Origin: an uncultured Agathobaculum sp.
Lineage (GTDB): Bacteria > Bacillota > Clostridia > Oscillospirales > Butyricicoccaceae
DNA length: 64,000 bases
Reading direction: 5' to 3'
Assembly: GCA_944384725.1 (NCBI GenBank)
Contig: CALWUJ010000001.1
Location: 62,001-126,000 of the forward strand
Shown here piece after piece: positions 21,015 through 30,333 of this stretch (its first letter is position 1; each line of letters starts with the position of its first letter). The notes below the pieces were generated by a model. It saw nothing but the letters and a program-made list of their open reading frames with translations, did no database searches and was not told the DNA's origin. The position numbers and the translations under genes were made by a program.

Positions 21015-22514
21015 TTAACTGCAAAAAAGCCGCCTGTTCTTACGAACAAGCGGCTTTTCTGGTACAGCGTCGATATTCAAATCCGAACTTTCTACATCTG
21101 CAAGACTGATTGTTTTTGTCCCGTCCTTATAGTTGAAGGTCAGCACAAGATGATCGTCATAGAGGAATATCTGGTTGACAAAGCAGTCTATCAAATGCTG
21201 CTTCTGGTTTTCGTCGGTGATATCTGTCTTTTGGAACTGACACAGGAAGAACAGTATCTGTTCCTCTGAAAGAACCGTATGGTGGATTTCTTCCACCGCA
21301 ATATGTTCCTCCAACCGAGCTTTTTCTTGCTCCAGCTCCTGCAATCGCTCTTTTGTAGTTGGCGTTATAATGCCTTGTTCGATTGCATTCATCAGGTTAT
21401 GCAGCCTTTTTTTCGTTTCCTGAAGTTCTGTTTTCAGCAATGCCGCTGCATGGCTTTCCTGCTCCTGCATCAAATACAGCCGATGTGCCAACCGTTCCAG
21501 CAGTTCTTCATTTTGTATCAGCTGCATGGTCGCTTTTAGCACGATATCCTCAATCCAATCTTTTTTGACCGCCTTTTTATCGCAGGTTTTGTGCCGCTTG
21601 GTATTAACGCAGCGATAGTACCGATAGATTGCTCCCGTGCTGCTTGTCCCGCTCTCACCAACCATAAATGCACCACATTTGCCGCAACAGAGTTTTGTGG
21701 TCAGCAGATAATTCTCCGTCGCCTTCGTCCGCGCTGGAGCATGCTGGTTTTTACCTTTACGCGCCTGCACCCGGTCAAACAGATCCTTCGGCACAAGTGC
21801 AGGGATGCCGTCCGGCACAACTGTATCTCCGAATCGGTATTCTCCGATATATTTCCGATTGCTTAATATTTGTGCAATCCTCGCTATGTTAAATGAATTT
21901 CCTCTCGCCGAGCGCAAACCACAGCGATTCAATTCCTCGGCAATCTCCTTCATGGAAATGCCCTGATCATACTTCTCAAAGATATCCAACACAATAGGTG
22001 CGGTATCCGGATCGGCATGATAGTGCAGTGCTTTGTCCACGGCAAATCCAAATGCAGGAACGCCGCCGTTATGTCGGCAGGTTAACGCGTTTTCCTTCAT
22101 GCCGCGCTTCACTTTTTTCGCCAAGTCTGCGGAAAAATATTCCGCATACCCTTCCAGCGTGGATTCCAGCAGGATTCCTTCACTGCCCTCGGAGATATTC
22201 TCGCATGCAGACAACACTTTCACGCCGTTTTGCTTCAGCTTGTGTTTATACCGTACACTATCGTATCGACTACGCGCAAAACGGTCCAGCTTCCACACAA
22301 GCACGACCTCAAACCGGCCCTTTGCGCTATCCCGGATCATACGCTGAAAGTCCGGCCGGTTATCCGTTCTGGCTGACCGTGCGCGGTCAATGTAGCACTC
22401 GATAATTGTCAGTCCTTTCCGCGTGGCATATTCCTTACACTCGCGGATCTGGCCGTCGATGCTTTCTTCGCGCTGGTTGTCTGAGGAATAGCGGGCGTAG
22501 ATTACGGCATTCAA
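21015..22514 (-). CDS. Large serine recombinase (site-specific integrase/transposase)
   Basis: 499 aa. The resolvase-type catalytic domain starts AVIYARYSSDNQREESIDGQ, with Ser10/Ser11 in the nucleophile position and Arg cluster LVWKLDRFARSRYDSV. The recombinase domain (NGGVPAFGFAVDK ... GISMKEIAEELNR) and a zinc-ribbon (CGKCGAFMVG ... YYRCVNTKRHKTCDKK) follow, then a coiled coil (QELEQEKARLEEHIAVEEIH). TTG start with AGGAGGGG upstream; an ATG closer to the RBS is out of frame. It belongs to the integrase class of mobile elements. No clear att sites or cargo boundary could be identified. Confidence 0.93.
   Translation of the reverse strand: MNAVIYARYSSDNQREESIDGQIRECKEYATRKGLTIIECYIDRARSARTDNRPDFQRMIRDSAKGRFEVVLVWKLDRFARSRYDSVRYKHKLKQNGVKVLSACENISEGSEGILLESTLEGYAEYFSADLAKKVKRGMKENALTCRHNGGVPAFGFAVDKALHYHADPDTAPIVLDIFEKYDQGISMKEIAEELNRCGLRSARGNSFNIARIAQILSNRKYIGEYRFGDTVVPDGIPALVPKDLFDRVQARKGKNQHAPARTKATENYLLTTKLCCGKCGAFMVGESGTSSTGAIYRYYRCVNTKRHKTCDKKAVKKDWIEDIVLKATMQLIQNEELLERLAHRLYLMQEQESHAAALLKTELQETKKRLHNLMNAIEQGIITPTTKERLQELEQEKARLEEHIAVEEIHHTVLSEEQILFFLCQFQKTDITDENQKQHLIDCFVNQIFLYDDHLVLTFNYKDGTKTISLADVESSDLNIDAVPEKPLVRKNRRLFCS
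21022..21060 (-). terminator. Terminator overlapping the serine recombinase stop region
   Basis: Minus strand AAAAGCCGCTTGTTC-GTAA-GAACAGGCGGCTTTTTT: the hairpin is embedded in the last codons of the recombinase and its T-run spans the gene end. Confidence 0.75.
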
Positions 22515-22624
22515 ATCGGTTCATCCCCTCCTAAAATCGAAAATTTGTTCGATAAAATTATACAGAATCTTACTCGAATTGTCAAAAACTTTCTGCTGGT
22601 CTGCTATAACACCCACAGAAATTT

Positions 22625-24693: not shown

Positions 24694-24900
24694 GTGATTT
24701 CTTATGATCCTCTTTGGAAAACAATGAAGCGAAAAGGGATCACTTCCTATAAGCTGATCAAGAACTATTCGTTTAGCCGCGGCACTTTAGATTCGCTCAA
24801 GCAAAACCGTAATATTTCCACAGCCACCTTGAACGACCTGTGCAGGATATTATCTTGTAGAGTTGAAGATGTTCTCCTGTATATTCCTGATGATGAATAA
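24694..24900 (+). CDS. Small XRE-family (YozG-like) transcriptional regulator
   Basis: 68 aa, GTG start behind AGAGGGGG. It is a Cro/CI-type helix-turn-helix: GITSYKLIKNYSFSRGTLDS and ISTATLNDLCRILSCRVEDV are the usual recognition and capping helices of short Cro-like regulators. It is divergent from the SLH gene and convergent with tyrosine recombinase A, with which it shares a terminator. Target unknown. Confidence 0.85.
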   Translation: MISYDPLWKTMKRKGITSYKLIKNYSFSRGTLDSLKQNRNISTATLNDLCRILSCRVEDVLLYIPDDE

Positions 24901-24932
24901 AGCCCGTCCGAATTCGGATGGGCTTTATTTTT
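24899..24932. terminator. Terminator between XRE regulator and recombinase A
   Basis: AAAGCCCGTCCGAATTCGGATGGGCTTTATTTTT: hairpin overlapping both convergent stop regions, T-run on the plus strand. Confidence 0.85.
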
Positions 24933-25930
24933 CAGCGCAGCCTCCACAGATAACTTGCAACCACAACCGACGACCGGCTATGCCCCAGCGACGCCGATAC
25001 CCGCAGCAGCGCCCGGCGGTCCCACACCATCCCCTGTGCGTCCCGATACCGGGAGGGGCGGGATTTCCCGTACTCTACCGTCCTTTCCTTTACCGGAATC
25101 TCCTCGACCGGGCGAGCATACGCCTGATACAACTCGCAGGCATACATGCTCCGGATACCGTGGACATCAATCCGGTCCGGAATCTTACTGCAAATCTTTT
25201 CGTCCGGTTGATAGCTTGACAGGATTTCACGCAACTGCCCGGTGTATTTCGGCAAAATTTCGATCGTGCGCGTGCGTCCCCCTTTGGTCCAAACCGTCTG
25301 CTCTCCCTGCCCGATGTTTTTGCTGTCGTTATTTCCCGACAAATGACACACTGTCTTTTCTCCCTCAAATCGAAAATTTGATGGACGCACCTGTTCCGCT
25401 TCATCCTCGCGTAAGCCCGTCATACGACAGATCTGCATGATATCCGCAACCCGGTTCTCTCCATGATTGCGGCGGTTGCGCAGCTGATTATTATACGTTG
25501 CCTCAGAATACGAACGGCTGCGGGTTGCGTCCTGCGTCCGTACCATTGGCCTGTCGGCATGAACTTCATTCATCGTACAGCTGTGAAGGAATGCAAGCGC
25601 AGCCGTATAAGACTTGATCGTCGCTGCTTTACCCCCGGCATCGATTTGCGTTTGAATATATTCGCGGTCATAGTGGCGTTTATGCGCTACAATGAGCTTT
25701 CTACAGTCCGGATGCACTTCTGCCATCCACTGCGCATACCGCTTGACTTTACCGGCATAACCATCGATCGTCCGGTCTGCATGCAGCATGCCGCTGGATT
25801 TTCGCTTGCTCCCGGCCTTTATCTTTTCTTCACGAGCCTTATGCTTACTGACCCCCTTGGCAATACTCGATGACAACTTATCCTGACATGCCTTCGCAAA
25901 CGGCGTCCTGATTTCATCATAAATTTTCAT
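24932..25930 (-). CDS. Tyrosine recombinase paralogue A
   Basis: 332 aa from ATG 25930 (GGAGGG 6 nt upstream). The catalytic set of the phage-integrase family is visible: Arg174 in TGLREDEA, Lys216 in the beta-hairpin TKGGRTRTI, His257/Arg260 in DVHGIRSMYA, His317 in SLGHSRSS and the nucleophile Tyr327 in VASYLW. The N-terminal ~110 residues contain a core-binding-like region (TIDGYAGKVKRYAQWM, TIKSYTAALAFLHSC). Paralogue B at 28412-29410 has the same length and every catalytic residue at the same number. The two flank the TnpB module in the same orientation. Function (excision/integration or a domesticated role) not determinable. Confidence 0.85.
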   Translation of the reverse strand: MKIYDEIRTPFAKACQDKLSSSIAKGVSKHKAREEKIKAGSKRKSSGMLHADRTIDGYAGKVKRYAQWMAEVHPDCRKLIVAHKRHYDREYIQTQIDAGGKAATIKSYTAALAFLHSCTMNEVHADRPMVRTQDATRSRSYSEATYNNQLRNRRNHGENRVADIMQICRMTGLREDEAEQVRPSNFRFEGEKTVCHLSGNNDSKNIGQGEQTVWTKGGRTRTIEILPKYTGQLREILSSYQPDEKICSKIPDRIDVHGIRSMYACELYQAYARPVEEIPVKERTVEYGKSRPSRYRDAQGMVWDRRALLRVSASLGHSRSSVVVASYLWRLR

Positions 25931-25979
25931 ATACGACCCTCCCACTACTGAAATTGATGCGGCATTTCATGCGTTAGCG

Positions 25980-26075
25980 TGCCAGCAAACAGCCGTCATA
26001 CGATCAGAACCGTATGGTGTGGGCCGTCAATGCCTTGCTGTTGAAACAAACTACCGGCATGTACGCTGCTGCTGC
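25980..26075. repeat. Conserved element upstream of recombinase A (copy A)
   Basis: About 50-145 bp upstream of the recombinase A start. Shares GCCAGCAAACAG, TGCCTTGCTGTT and CTACCGGCATGTACGCTG with copy B (29537-29632), which reads GCCGGCAAACAG, TGCCTTGCCGTT, CTACCGACATGTACACTG. Conservation outside the gene suggests an att-like recombination site, an operator, or a decayed 3' end of an older gene. Confidence 0.65.
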
Positions 26076-26329
26076 AGTGATGCCGATTGCGGGGATAAAA
26101 CGGCGTGGGCGTCAGTCCGGATCCCGTTCAAGTGATTGCATAACCACTTGGTGTGATCTTTCCTGCTCCATCCCACTGGGTGGAGACCGTTACAACAACG
26201 GTCGTGCTGGTTATATGACGCTGCCCAAAGGTCAGCAATCATATAACCATCACTCTTTCCGACGCATCGTTTCACGCCGGTTGCCCGGATTTCCGGACCA
26301 TATACAGCAGGGTACGCTGCTGCATACAA
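26076..26329. other. Intergenic sequence, no gene recognised
   Basis: No convincing gene. A minus-strand open frame (26051-26329) lacks a family match and a good RBS. The stretch has inverted words such as GTGGTTATGCAATCACTTG and repeats of GTACGCTGCTG (near 26058 and 26312), consistent with remnants of mobile DNA. Confidence 0.4.
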
Positions 26330-26437
26330 TCATATTTTCCATACGAGACACTTTGTGCTGGCGTCTCTGTTTTTGTGTCTTTCAAAAAATTTTGCGTTCC
26401 TCTTAAATTTTTTTGCTGAGCCGTACCGCTCAAACAC
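26330..26437 (-). CDS. Possible 35-aa basic small protein
   Basis: GTG start at 26437 with GAAAGGAGAGAAGCAGGAAA upstream, the best RBS in this gap. Product is lysine/arginine-rich (ERYGSAKKFKRNAKFFERHK) and ends at TGA 26330-26332. No homologue recognised. It lies downstream of the small-RNA unit at 26488-26600 and 400 bp upstream of recombinase A on the same strand. It could be a chance frame; the RBS is the only support. Confidence 0.3.
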   Translation of the reverse strand: MFERYGSAKKFKRNAKFFERHKNRDASTKCLVWKI

Positions 26438-26484: not shown

Positions 26485-26524
26485 AAAAATCCGCACAATA
26501 ACGTCGTTAGTGTGCGGATAAAAA
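26485..26524 (-). terminator. Terminator of the small-RNA unit
   Basis: ATCCGCACA stem with inner TAACG/CGTTA pairing; minus-strand tail GGATTTTTGC. Symmetric A-run makes it usable from the plus strand too. Confidence 0.8.
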
Positions 26525-26565
26525 TTTCAGTTCTTGCTCCAGATTGTTTCGTTCGTTTTCATTAT
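26488..26565 (-). ncRNA. Candidate ~75-80 nt small RNA or leader downstream of tnpB
   Basis: A self-contained transcription unit: near-consensus promoter at 26600-26572, predicted start near 26565, and a strong terminator at 26524-26485. The predicted transcript also contains an 11-codon frame (ATGAAAACGAACG..., stop TGA) without an obvious RBS, so it could be a leader peptide rather than an RNA gene. It is located 195 bp after the tnpB stop on the same strand. Not matched to a known RNA family. Confidence 0.5.
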
Positions 26566-26571
26566 GGTGCC

Positions 26572-26600
26572 ATTGTAATATCGTTTTTTACGCCCGTCAA
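26572..26600 (-). promoter_or_regulatory. Strong promoter of the small-RNA unit
   Basis: Minus strand TTGACG (26600-26595), exactly 17 nt, TACAAT (26577-26572); 5/6 matches in each hexamer. Confidence 0.75.
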
Positions 26601-26629
26601 GTTTCGTGTATTTCATAAAAATAAACCGT

Positions 26630-26672
26630 CACAAATAAAAATGGATGCAGCAGTGCGTCCACTGCTGCATCC
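26630..26672 (-). terminator. tnpB 3' hairpin (terminator or right-end structure)
   Basis: Perfect 13-bp stem GGATGCAGCAGTG-GACG-CACTGCTGCATCC, minus-strand tail ATTTTTATTT, about 90 bp after the tnpB stop. In IS200/IS605 elements the tnpB 3' end plus right end is also the source of the guide (omega) RNA, so this hairpin may be both terminator and part of that RNA. Confidence 0.75.
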
Positions 26673-26758
26673 AACGGGCAAAGATAAGACTGTGCCGCCA
26701 TTCACGCAGCCCGTAAGCGTGCGTTCACACCCAGACGGCCGGGGGCGATAGAAACAGA

Positions 26759-27874
26759 TTATTGCTCCATCTGACGAAGACCTTCCTCACGGATATTGCG
26801 GGCGGCGTTATGGTTGCGGTCCAGAGAAAGCCCGCAGTATGGACAAGTGAATGCTGAATCCATCGGAAGTTTGCCCACCTTGCGGCCGCAGGCCGAGCAG
26901 ATCTGCGAACTGGGATAGTAGCGATCCACACGGATGAGGCGCTTTCCCTGCGCGTTCAGGACCTGTTCCAACCGCTTATAAAACGCAGCCGGTGCATTGT
27001 CGCATAGCTTGCCGGATAAAGCCGGTTCATTCTGCATCATACCGGCAAGATCCAGCGTTTCCACACAGACGGCATCGTACTGCTGTGCGAGTGCATGAGC
27101 CTGTTTATACTGCCAGTCCTTGCGCTGGTTAACCACATGGCGTTCAATCTTGGCCGCACGCTGCCGGAACTTCCGCCAACGCCGGCTGCCGGTTTTGAAA
27201 CGGTTGGCCGCACGATGACAGCGGTTGAGTTTGTCCTGTGCCTGATGCCGGAATGCCGGATAGCCCGCGCAGTGACCAGATGAATCGACGTACAGGCCAT
27301 CCTGCGCGTAGTCCAGGCCGACAACCTTGCTGTAATGAATAGGCACTGGATCAACCGGCTGCTGGGGAACAATCAAGTGCAGCGCAACATGATAAAATGC
27401 ATGATAGCAGTCCGCATAGACCGTGGCGCCATAAATACGCGCGCCCTTGGGCAGGTCACGGTGCTGCTCCATCGCGATCGAGCCGATCACAGGCAAAACC
27501 AGATGGTAGTCGCTGATCCCGACATAGTGGTAACGTGCGCTGCGCTGGCTGCGATCCGTTCGACGAAGTTTAATACATGTTATCTTGCCGCTGCACAGGC
27601 GAGGCAGCAGGGAAATGATCCGCTTGCGGACTTGAGTGATTGCAAAGTGGTCTACCTCATTCTCGGTCGGGATCGGGTGGTTCTGGACGAGTGCCTTCAG
27701 TTCTTCGAGACCGGCCCCTTGGCTGTACGACTGATTCACATGGCCTGCCAAAGTATTGTAGGCGCTGTCTTCCTGATCGAAGCGCGCGGCAAGCAAGTTC
27801 TGCTGTACATTTGTGGGATAAATGGGGTATTCGTGGATGCGGAAGTCGTTTTTTTCGTATTTAGTAGTCATCAT
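26759..27874 (-). CDS. tnpB: TnpB-like RNA-guided nuclease (IS200/IS605 OrfB family)
   Basis: 371 aa from ATG 27874 (AGGAGG 8 nt upstream). RuvC-like nuclease residues are all present: Asp188 in VVGLDYAQ, Glu272 in VCVETLDLAG and Asp352 in SLDRNHNAARNI. A zinc finger CSACG ... CPYCG (Cys326/329/344/347) lies between RuvC II and III. The N-terminal half is typical in length but less conserved. TnpB proteins are RNA-guided DNA nucleases that favour retention of their transposon. No tnpA (Y1 transposase) is nearby, as in IS1341-type elements. Flanked by recombinase paralogues and divergent from an XRE gene, which is not standard for this family. Confidence 0.92.
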   Translation of the reverse strand: MMTTKYEKNDFRIHEYPIYPTNVQQNLLAARFDQEDSAYNTLAGHVNQSYSQGAGLEELKALVQNHPIPTENEVDHFAITQVRKRIISLLPRLCSGKITCIKLRRTDRSQRSARYHYVGISDYHLVLPVIGSIAMEQHRDLPKGARIYGATVYADCYHAFYHVALHLIVPQQPVDPVPIHYSKVVGLDYAQDGLYVDSSGHCAGYPAFRHQAQDKLNRCHRAANRFKTGSRRWRKFRQRAAKIERHVVNQRKDWQYKQAHALAQQYDAVCVETLDLAGMMQNEPALSGKLCDNAPAAFYKRLEQVLNAQGKRLIRVDRYYPSSQICSACGRKVGKLPMDSAFTCPYCGLSLDRNHNAARNIREEGLRQMEQ

Positions 27875-27951
27875 ATAGTAATCCTCCTGTCCAATCACAG
27901 TTTTGTTACTCCGTCTGAGACTCTGATGCATCAGCTTTTCTTTATGTTGTC

Positions 27952-27980
27952 ATTATACACTTTTAAGTGTCGTATGTCAA
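27952..27980 (-). promoter_or_regulatory. Consensus sigma-A promoter of tnpB
   Basis: Minus strand TTGACA (27980-27975), 17 nt, TATAAT (27957-27952): both hexamers match consensus perfectly. About 78 bp upstream of the tnpB start codon. Confidence 0.85.
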
Positions 27981-27991
27981 CATCTAAGTGT
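27957..27991. promoter_or_regulatory. Palindromic operator candidate over the tnpB promoter
   Basis: ACACTTTTAAGTGT (27957-27970), a perfect 14-bp palindrome, lies in the spacer of the tnpB promoter. A second related site CAACATCTAAGTGT (27978-27991; 10 of 14 identical, right half perfect) covers the -35 box. Spacing of 21 bp puts them two helical turns apart. The divergent XRE protein at 28079-28297 is the obvious candidate binder. Confidence 0.65.
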
Positions 27992-28022
27992 AAATTATTT
28001 TATTTCTTTCGACGCATAGTAT

Positions 28023-28051
28023 TTGACTTTAGACATTATTTCGTTTATACT
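28023..28051 (+). promoter_or_regulatory. Promoter of XRE regulator next to tnpB
   Basis: TTGACT (28023-28028), 17 nt, TATACT (28046-28051), followed by an AAGGAAAGGGGG RBS and the ATG at 28079. Confidence 0.8.
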
Positions 28052-28078
28052 GAGCTTACAAGGAAAGGGGGCTGCAAA

Positions 28079-28297
28079 ATGGCGTTAAGTATGGGTGAAA
28101 AAATCAAGGTGATCCTGAATCGCCGCAATCTGACGATTACGCAGTTAGCCTCAGCGCTGGATACCTCACGTCAAAACCTGAGTAACAAATTTGCACGCGA
28201 TAATTTTTCAGAGCAGGAATTACGGCAGATTGCAAAGGCACTGAACTGCGAATTTATTGGCAGTTTTAAGATGCTGGATACGGATGAAATCGTTTAA
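28079..28297 (+). CDS. Small XRE-family regulator divergent from tnpB
   Basis: 72 aa Cro/CI-type helix-turn-helix: MGEKIKVILNRRNLTITQLA, SALDTSRQNLSNKFARDNFS, then EQELRQIAKALNCEF, with a short C-terminal extension. It is likely a repressor of tnpB and/or of itself through the palindromes at 27957-27991. It differs from the XRE protein at 24694-24900. The open frame extends upstream to 27335 antisense to tnpB, but the promoter and RBS fix the start at 28079. Confidence 0.88.
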   Translation: MALSMGEKIKVILNRRNLTITQLASALDTSRQNLSNKFARDNFSEQELRQIAKALNCEFIGSFKMLDTDEIV

Positions 28298-28315
28298 ATT
28301 GTTCTGGACGCAGCG

Positions 28316-28359
28316 AAAGCCCCGTTATATCCAACCAAGGATATAACGGGGCTTTTTGC
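28316..28359 (+). terminator. Terminator of XRE regulator
   Basis: AAAGCCCCGTTATATCC-AACCAA-GGATATAACGGGGCTTT followed by TTGC; 17-bp perfect stem. Confidence 0.92.
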
Positions 28360-28411: not shown

Positions 28412-29410
28412 CTACCGCAACACCCACAGATAGTTCTGCACCACAACTTCCGAGCGGTTATGTCCAAGCGAAGCCGAAACCCGCAGCAGTGCGCGCCGAT
28501 CCCAAACCTTACCCTGATGATCCACATAACGGGACGGACGATCCTTTCCATTTTCTCGCGTCCTCTCATTCGGCGGAATCTGCTCAATCTGACGAGCATA
28601 CAACAGATATAATTCCGCCGCATATAGGGCACGGATGCCATGAATGTTAACACGATCAGGAATTTGGGAGCAAATCGGCGTGCCCGGCTCTGCGCGTGCA
28701 AGAATTTCCTGCAAAATGTTTTCGTAGCGGGGTACAATTTCGATCGTCCGCTCACGGCCGCCTTTCGTGTGGACAACTGATTCATCCTGCCGCAGCCTGT
28801 GACTTTTATTGCTCCCGGTCACATGGCAGACCCAACCATCCTGTGTATGCAAAAAATTTTCCCTGCGGATCTGCTGCGCCTCGTCCTTGCGCAGACCTGC
28901 CATCCGACAAATCTGCATGATATCAGCGATGGCAGACTGTCCTTTACTGGTACGGCGCGCAAGCTGCCTGTTATACTCGTCCTCTGAAAAAGTACGGCAG
29001 CGCGTCGCATCCTGAGCGCATACCACCGGACGCTCACTGTGTACCTCCCGCATCGTGCAATTGTGCAGGAATGCAACATCTGCGGTGTACGTTTTGATCG
29101 TAGCTGGCTTTCTTCCTTCATCAATAATCGACTGAACGAATTCACGGTCGTAGTGGCGTTTATGGGCGATCAGCAGCCGACGGCAATCTGGATGATTCTC
29201 CTTCATCCAAACCGCATATTTCTGTGCGATCTTCGCATAGTTATCGATTGTCGTATCTGCGTGCAGTAACCCGCTAGACTGGCGTTTACTGCCGTTCTGT
29301 ACTGCTTCTGCACGCGCACGGTGCTTGCTGACGTTTTTTCCAATCGAAGAGAGCAGACGATCCTCGCAGGCTTTTGCAAATGGTGTGTGTACGTTGTTGT
29401 AGATATTCAT
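28412..29410 (-). CDS. Tyrosine recombinase paralogue B
   Basis: 332 aa, AGGAGG upstream of ATG 29410. Same catalytic layout and numbering as paralogue A: Arg174 (AGLRKDEA), Lys216 (HTKGGRERTI), His257/Arg260 (NIHGIRALYA), His317 (LGHNRSEV), Tyr327 (VQNYLW). Sequences are alike along the full length but clearly diverged, so the duplication is not recent. Both carry the shared upstream element. The conserved C-terminus RRALLRVSASLGH is unusual for integrases in placing the His/Tyr motifs only 15 residues from the end. Confidence 0.85.
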   Translation of the reverse strand: MNIYNNVHTPFAKACEDRLLSSIGKNVSKHRARAEAVQNGSKRQSSGLLHADTTIDNYAKIAQKYAVWMKENHPDCRRLLIAHKRHYDREFVQSIIDEGRKPATIKTYTADVAFLHNCTMREVHSERPVVCAQDATRCRTFSEDEYNRQLARRTSKGQSAIADIMQICRMAGLRKDEAQQIRRENFLHTQDGWVCHVTGSNKSHRLRQDESVVHTKGGRERTIEIVPRYENILQEILARAEPGTPICSQIPDRVNIHGIRALYAAELYLLYARQIEQIPPNERTRENGKDRPSRYVDHQGKVWDRRALLRVSASLGHNRSEVVVQNYLWVLR

Positions 29411-29536
29411 AAAAGCCTCCTGACCCAGCCATGCTTACAGATGAGTATATAAGCATAGCAAAACAGACGCCTGTTTCAAAACAGGAAGCAAGGGGAGGCG
29501 CCACCCCCAATCTTCCAAATGGCATCCACCTTACGG

Positions 29537-29632
29537 TGCCGGCAAACAGTCCTCGCATGAACCTGTCCATGCGGTCAACTGCCGATGCCTTGCCGTTCAA
29601 ACAACTACCGACATGTACACTGGTTATCCCAG
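29537..29632. repeat. Conserved element upstream of recombinase B (copy B)
   Basis: Counterpart of 25980-26075. Words shared with copy A include GGCAAACAG, TGCCTTGCCGTT and CTACCGACATGTACACTG. It continues in the plus direction into an open frame reading VQTTTDMYTGYPSDVDF, so a decayed coding 3' end is one explanation. Confidence 0.65.
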
Positions 29633-30333
29633 CGATGTCGATTTCAAACAAAAAACGCGGAAAGCAGCCGTCAAAATCGCTTCAGAAGAGGCATCCCTAC
29701 TGGTATGCGATCTCTACCGTCCTGCTTAACAGGTAATGATTTCAAGTTTCCCGGCTTTATTTATCTCCAGAATCTTTTCATAATCTGGCGTTTTCATCCG
29801 GGTTTCATTTTACATTTGTTATCGGTACAACAACGTCCTGCCCGGTTATTTTGCGTTTGGCCTCAAAATAACCGGACATTTTGCCTGATATGATACCTAT
29901 GATTTTGTACTTAGGTAATCATGCACTACGCAGCTCTTTCATCTTCAAGGCGAAAAGGGACGGAATTGCAGCAGCCTGCATTTCCGTCCCCTTTCAGAAA
30001 ACGCCGTTTCCGCGACCTCGGCATTTTCCCTCAATACCCGACATTACATCCCGTCGGGTCTGCTCTTTTTTATTGCATTGCAGATGGCAGTCCTCCTTTT
30101 TAGATTTTATAATTATATATGAAAGAAAGCATACCTATCCTTTAATAGGTATGCTTTCTATTTTTCTTATTATTTTTACAGGCTAAACCTATTCTCCAGG
30201 CTACACCTTCGTACTTCTTAATGCTTAAGCTTAGTATATCCCAACAGCAAGAATTTGTCAACAGATCACCGCCGCAGAAATGTTACAGAAGTATTACATT
30301 TCTTAAGCCTACTGCTCCTCTCTATGAGAAAGA
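29633..30333. other. AT-rich non-coding stretch with three strong hairpins
   Basis: No gene recognised. It contains three near-perfect inverted repeats: CCGGTTATTTTG/CAAAATAACCGG (29842-29875), GGGACGGAA...TTCCGTCCC (29957-29990) and AGAAAGCATACCTAT/ATAGGTATGCTTTCT followed by ATTTTTC (30123-30167). The last two resemble intrinsic terminators. Likely remains of several element ends. Confidence 0.6.

What the first reader, a model, noticed from the sequence alone, without database searches (positions are those of the whole stretch)
26485..28359. TnpB locus with its own XRE regulator, consensus promoters and palindromic operator
The TnpB gene has all RuvC residues and a perfect TTGACA-17-TATAAT promoter, whose spacer and -35 are covered by two related palindromic sites (27957-27970 and 27978-27991). 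A small XRE protein with its own strong promoter is transcribed divergently. Stand-alone IS605 tnpB genes normally lack a dedicated repressor, so this resembles a regulated, perhaps retained or domesticated, nuclease module.
Basis: partly seen in the sequence, partly recalled or inferred. Interest (0 to 1): 0.72.

Follow-up and report, generated by a model that had tools for sequence, protein, structure and literature searches.

The report
TnpB gene behind a borrowed switch
A gut bacterium carries an RNA-guided TnpB gene, with one cutting residue changed, behind a repressor switch that elsewhere controls other genes, so the pair looks borrowed rather than dedicated, while relatives of this TnpB sit behind different switches.

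Summary
The promoter, operator and divergent XRE gene are real: a perfect TTGACA-17-TATAAT with a perfect ACACTNNNNAGTGT dyad in its spacer. Two claims fail. (1) The RuvC triad is not complete: the residue matching ISDra2 D361 is Asn354, as in G007, G011 and G009; G015 and G010 keep Asp. dN/dS is about 0.2, so the protein is still selected. (2) The XRE is not dedicated to TnpB. None of 7 genomes with close TnpB relatives has an XRE homologue at E<=1e-5, while 6 other genomes carry an XRE homologue with the same operator-promoter (at most 3 mismatches) and no close TnpB match. The operator belongs to the XRE; tnpB is the gene now downstream. Other copies sit behind other dyads: a LexA-like box in G010, G015, G006 and G022, an 18-bp palindrome in G011; G009 shows none. 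Best reading: a TnpB-omegaRNA unit repressed by a generic mobile-element XRE switch. Whether it still cleaves is open. Binding, derepression, guide and target are untested. In passing: a covarying four-helix 5'-leader RNA with no Rfam match, in 23 of 87 family genomes but not in the window.

The parts
26759..27874 (-). tnpB, 371 aa; D188, E272, N354 at the RuvC positions
26813..26815 (-). codon of Asn354, aligned with ISDra2 D361
27952..27980 (-). tnpB promoter TTGACA-17-TATAAT
27957..27970 (.). dyad ACACTTTTAAGTGT, proposed XRE operator
27978..27991 (.). adjacent half-site, overlaps the -35 box
   Evidence: by eye
28023..28051 (+). XRE promoter TTGACT-17-TATACT
28079..28297 (+). XRE/HTH_26 protein, 72 aa
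28316..28355 (.). hairpin, 17-nt arms, between the convergent XRE and recombinase genes
26674..26746 (-). conserved right-end block, candidate omegaRNA scaffold
26642..26673 (-). terminal hairpin, 14 pairs, loop GACG; stem varies but keeps pairing in six copies
24932..25930 (-). tyrosine-recombinase-like gene downstream of tnpB (neighbour)
   Evidence: Integrase_1 E 7.5e-5
28412..29410 (-). paralogue of it, 62% identical (neighbour)

Best explanation
A TnpB-omegaRNA unit has come to lie under a portable XRE switch of a kind found in front of various small genes in other genomes. The XRE binds the dyad in the tnpB promoter spacer (27957-27970, perhaps with the adjacent half-site) and blocks RNA polymerase; it may also restrain its own promoter. 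When the XRE is lost or inactivated, one transcript would run through tnpB, the right-end scaffold and the terminal hairpin and give TnpB plus its guide RNA. The third RuvC position is Asn, yet the gene is under purifying selection, so a working protein is expected: either an RNA-guided binder with weak or no cleavage, or a nuclease that uses another acid. Seen in the sequence: promoter, dyad, its co-occurrence with the XRE elsewhere, N354, selection, right-end hairpin. Inferred: XRE binding, derepression, guide RNA, cleavage state.
For: Perfect promoter with the only such dyad in the window. The same operator-promoter lies 89-109 nt from the XRE start in 7 of 31 XRE loci, window included, and the only printed sites with 0 or 1 mismatch among 394 genomes (G000, G062, G261) each lie beside an XRE homologue (the list was cut). 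The 7 genomes with close TnpB relatives lack the XRE. N354 in window, G007, G011, G009 with dN/dS 0.20 for both close pairs. Terminal hairpin: 13 innermost positions pair in 6 of 6 copies, 12 of 14 positions change pair type.
Against: Ten of 31 XRE loci have 9 or more mismatches to the operator-promoter. No binding or expression data. Only one genome shows tnpB with this XRE, so capture by chance cannot be told from selected regulation. The long-range scaffold pairing was picked by eye and appears in the minimum-energy fold of 2 of 6 copies (G010, G015); the fold of the G007 copy is not better than shuffles (z -1.1). Guide and target adjacent motif were not found.
Confidence: 0.55

Rival explanations
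1. Chance landing: an ordinary TnpB element inserted downstream of an existing XRE-controlled promoter, and the regulation plays no selected role for TnpB.
For: The XRE-operator unit occurs without this tnpB in 6 other genomes; left flanks of G011 and G009 differ up to the tnpB ribosome-binding site; single copy in the genome.
Against: 6 of 7 copies with a visible upstream region, window included, have an operator-like dyad in a promoter, of three unrelated kinds; but the four LexA-like ones share descent, so this is about three events, and the seventh (G009) has none.
Confidence: 0.35
2. TnpB is a fully active nuclease: D352, two residues upstream, or another acid replaces the missing third Asp.
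For: D352 is kept in the four DRN copies and is Arg in the two copies that keep Asp at 354. Among 16 more distant TnpBs of the family printed, 7 have Asp, 5 have Glu and 4 have neither (A or G) at this position, and 3 of those 4 keep the upstream Asp. TnpBs with a relocated catalytic Glu are described (PMC10711439, passages).
Against: ISDra2 TnpB has Asp at both positions, so D352 may be just the ordinary first Asp of the motif. The fold model was too poor to judge geometry (pLDDT 66).
Confidence: 0.35
3. Dedicated, domesticated XRE-TnpB module.
For: Divergent layout and operator in the tnpB promoter.
Against: No XRE homologue in the 7 genomes with close TnpB relatives; XRE-operator unit without this tnpB elsewhere. 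The G007 copy is cut at its 5' end, and several genomes are incomplete.
Confidence: 0.07

Closest known systems
ISDra2 TnpB (PDB 8BF8, 8H1J), RNA-guided nuclease of an IS200/IS605 element
   Same: Aligns over positions 12-365 of the profile, E about 8e-33; RuvC I and II acids, zinc ribbon
   Different: Third RuvC Asp is Asn; repressor-controlled promoter; no Y1 transposase among the 9 window ORFs profiled
TldR, TnpB-like nuclease-dead repressors (PMC13418256: passages and section 11 seen)
   Same: RuvC residue changed, guide-scaffold-like right end kept, purifying selection; csrA-linked TldRs also occur in Oscillibacter and Flavonifractor
   Different: Only one residue changed; no target, no repression shown; no fixed partner gene
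Cas12m2, binding-only Cas12 with non-canonical HDD triad (PMC10442227, passages)
   Same: Natural change in the RuvC triad of a Cas12/TnpB-type protein
   Different: Different positions changed (first and second); CRISPR-associated
Small XRE/Cro-C1 repressors with divergent promoters
   Same: HTH_26 domain, divergent promoters, dyad between -35 and -10
   Different: The gene facing it in the window is tnpB

Membership tests
TnpB RNA-guided nuclease | TnpB profile and TNB zinc ribbon | tested here: met
   (guided_TnpB 164 bits, cut-off 100)
TnpB RNA-guided nuclease | RuvC D-E-D triad | tested here: not met
   N at the third position; other TnpBs of the family also vary here
TnpB RNA-guided nuclease | right-end omegaRNA | tested here: inconclusive
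   conserved block and covarying terminal hairpin; no RNA data
TnpB RNA-guided nuclease | guided DNA cleavage | not testable with these tools
   needs biochemistry
TldR | inactivated RuvC | tested here: inconclusive
   one residue changed, D352 could substitute
TldR | guide matching a regulated promoter | not tested
   guide start not established
TldR | stable link to a non-transposon gene | tested here: not met
   no XRE with the relatives; downstream recombinase differs between window and G007/G011/G009
XRE repressor with divergent operator | HTH domain | tested here: met
XRE repressor with divergent operator | operator co-occurring with the gene in other genomes | tested here: met
   7 of 31 loci at <=3 mismatches, window included; 10 of 31 at >=9
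XRE repressor with divergent operator | binding and repression | not testable with these tools
   needs gel shift and reporter
IS200/IS605 element | Y1 transposase next to tnpB | tested here: not met
   none among 9 profiled window ORFs; the whole genome was not searched for it
IS200/IS605 element | defined left and right ends | tested here: inconclusive
   right-end hairpin conserved; left end not fixed

The most novel reading that the evidence does not exclude
A genus-restricted TnpB clade with a conserved Asp-to-Asn change at RuvC-III has become an RNA-guided DNA-binding factor that mobile-element repressors (XRE, and another dyad-binding repressor) hold silent, as a LexA-like switch does for its sister copies, and that is deployed when the element or host is stressed: an inducible TldR-like system.
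Probability: 0.15. Interest if true: 0.72.

Novelty: new variant of a known kind. Interest (0 to 1): 0.45.

Why it matters
If TnpBs are often placed behind inducible repressors, their activity is conditional, and their role (transposon retention, competition between elements, gene control) must be studied under induction. A selected variant at the third RuvC position would also be a natural test of where TnpB nucleases turn into binders.

Tried and rejected
Dedicated XRE-TnpB pair: rejected by co-occurrence. Relatives elsewhere: no phage record at E<=1e-40; three plasmid records, best 33% identity; viral contigs none by single query or by alignment; 394 order genomes: only the window and G015 at E<=1e-60. 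Rfam near tnpB and in relatives at E<=1: nothing convincing at tnpB. AlphaFold model of TnpB from six sequences: pLDDT 66, RuvC part unreliable, not used. A likeness between the right-end hairpin and a site near 26312-26340 was considered as a guide target; that site is itself a hairpin and the guide start is unknown, so it was dropped. PADLOC gives Cas12f-type hits for TnpB, as expected for this superfamily, and only weak XRE hits. The genes facing the XRE homologues had no convincing Pfam match, and the two tried had no NCBIfam match; the queries were partly cut where the earlier print cut them. Calling the small ORF beside the G011 tnpB ribbon-helix-helix is by eye only (no hit).

Full report
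What is there. The window is part of a 1.94-Mb draft genome, 78% complete. tnpB runs 26759-27874 on the minus strand behind a consensus promoter at 27952-27980. The dyad ACACTTTTAAGTGT (27957-27970) fills most of the spacer and is the only such dyad in 64 kb. The XRE gene (28079-28297) is divergent, has its own promoter and matches HTH_26. A hairpin with 17-nt perfect arms (28316-28355) lies between it and a convergent recombinase-like gene. tnpB and the XRE are single in the genome.

The protein. It scores as guided TnpB. Aligned to ISDra2 TnpB the third RuvC residue is Asn354; D188 and E272 are kept. DRN is also found in G007, G011 and G009; G015 and G010 keep Asp at that position, as does the 55%-identical C-terminal fragment L020. 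Of 16 more distant family TnpBs printed, 7 have Asp here, 5 Glu and 4 Ala or Gly (my reading of the motif by eye), so the position varies among TnpBs and loss of cleavage is not certain. dN/dS (Nei-Gojobori) is 0.20 for window-G007, 0.20 for G011-G009 and 0.08 for G010-G015.

The right end. About 105 nt after tnpB are conserved in six copies. The terminal hairpin pairs at its 13 innermost positions in all six, position 14 in five; 12 of 14 positions show more than one pair type; the loop is GACG in four copies and GATC in two. A long-range pairing (ACGGGC/GCCCGT, GCGAGC/GCTCGC; four of six pairs in G011 and G009) was picked by eye and is in the minimum-energy fold of G010 and G015 only. Folding is better than shuffles in five of six (z -2.9 to -3.9), not in G007 (z -1.1). 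This fits an omegaRNA with a right-end hairpin but was not proved; where the guide begins is unknown.

Does the XRE belong to tnpB? In 87 family genomes close TnpB relatives occur in seven besides the window: G006, G007, G009, G010, G011, G015, G022; G006 and G022 are truncated. None of the seven has an XRE homologue at E<=1e-5. The G007 contig ends inside tnpB, so its upstream region cannot be seen. XRE homologues occur in 7 of 87 family genomes at E<=1e-5 and in 16 of 394 order genomes at E<=1e-12, the window counted in both. I scored 31 XRE loci, the window included and some overlapping or near-duplicate, against the window's operator-promoter in the 250 bp upstream: 0, 0, 0, 1, 2, 3, 3 mismatches in the window, L007 (G062), L060 (G333), L059 (G261), L066 (G353), L063 (G233) and L064 (G239), always 89-109 nt from the XRE start; single-letter shuffles (200 per locus) never gave 3 or fewer. 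Ten of 31 had 9 or more mismatches. Those six other genomes show no close TnpB match: G062 none at E<=1e-20, the others none at E<=1e-60. A pattern scan of 394 genomes had at least one match with up to 3 mismatches in 129; the printed list was cut, its only 0- or 1-mismatch sites (G000, G062, G261) lie beside an XRE homologue, and most 2- and 3-mismatch sites were not checked for an XRE. In L059 and L064 the facing gene is a small protein with no convincing family; genes around L066 look like phage tail genes by eye only.

Other copies. G010, G015 and G006 have GAACATTTGTTC between the -35 and TATAAT boxes, G022 AAACATTTGTTC; G010 has a poor -35. That this resembles the Firmicutes LexA box is recalled. 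With one mismatch allowed, CGAACATTTGTTC occurs 11, 13, 9, 8 and 15 times in G000, G015, G010, G006 and G005, the reversed control 1, 4, 1, 1 and 7 times. Of 18 of the fetched sites that I looked at, one in G005 precedes an SOS-associated peptidase (SRAP) gene and one in G015 an MgsA/RarA gene; several others precede genes with no evident SOS role, and I did not identify lexA or recA. G011 has the 18-bp palindrome TATATGGTTAACCATATA overlapping the -35 end and spacer of a TTGATA-17-TATAAT promoter, with a small divergent ORF. G009 shows no operator. So 6 of 7 copies with a visible upstream region (window included) have an operator-like dyad in a promoter, of three unrelated kinds; the four LexA-like ones are related by descent.

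Neighbours. In G007, G011 and G009 tnpB is followed on the same strand by an integrase (PF00589 tested on G011); G011 and G009 are 94.5% identical over 2.58 kb from the tnpB ribosome-binding site to the end of the integrase, with different left flanks, though the G009 left flank holds part of what looks like an IS110 transposase gene and may be secondary. In the window the downstream gene is a recombinase of another type (Integrase_1, E 7.5e-5) with a 62% paralogue on the other side.

Literature. PMC13418256 (TldR): passages and section 11. PMC10711439: passages. PMC10442227: passages. PMC11844463: passages, no value for Asn at the third site found. A search for TnpB with LexA and SOS response gave one paper, on phage therapy (listing only); one for TnpB with tyrosine recombinase, integrase and RuvC gave three (listing only). 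The library lacks many subscription papers, so these are weak evidence of absence.

Verdict. The regulation is probably real but borrowed; the triad is altered; whether the protein cuts is open; the repeated placement of this TnpB subfamily behind repressible promoters is the part worth following.

Noticed in passing
L135-L164, e.g. L057:1240-1335, L054:10377-10465; not in the window: A four-helix junction RNA motif of about 90 nt just after the -10 box, as 5' leader of tnpB (G010, G015, G006, G022), of integrases (G007, G011, G009, G002) and of other genes, several looking secreted by eye. In 30 sequences 25 of 27 pairs change on both sides and 91.9% of cells pair (the alignment was fitted to the structure). 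Matches at E<=0.01 in 23 of 87 family genomes, the six training genomes included. No Rfam 15 match to the motif in the 13 loci scanned.
   Followed up: partly
25972-26100(-) and 29529-29655(-): Conserved leader upstream of the two Integrase_1-type recombinases; also in G010 and G006, and a weak match in G057 (4 of 87 genomes). A hairpin in it seems to change in step between copies, by eye.
   Followed up: partly
L055:578-3159, L056:643-3226, L057:6-2473: tnpB plus phage-type tyrosine integrase as one conserved stretch; possible tnpB-integrase mobile unit, ends not proved.
   Followed up: partly
26489-26600(-): Promoter-like TTGACG-17-TACAAT, a tiny ORF by eye, and a hairpin (26489-26519) between the tnpB right end and the downstream recombinase: a possible small transcript.
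   Followed up: no
22557-22585(-): A second perfect TTGACA-17-TATAAT promoter, upstream of a serine recombinase gene at 21015-22514.
   Followed up: no
24694-24900(+): A second small XRE protein (HTH_26, E 2.5e-14; weak VanU-like match), convergent with the recombinase at 24932-25930.
   Followed up: no
L019:2991-3062(+): Skipping-rope RNA (RF02924, 63.9 bits, E 2.5e-13) on the contig of the 87% TnpB relative.
   Followed up: no
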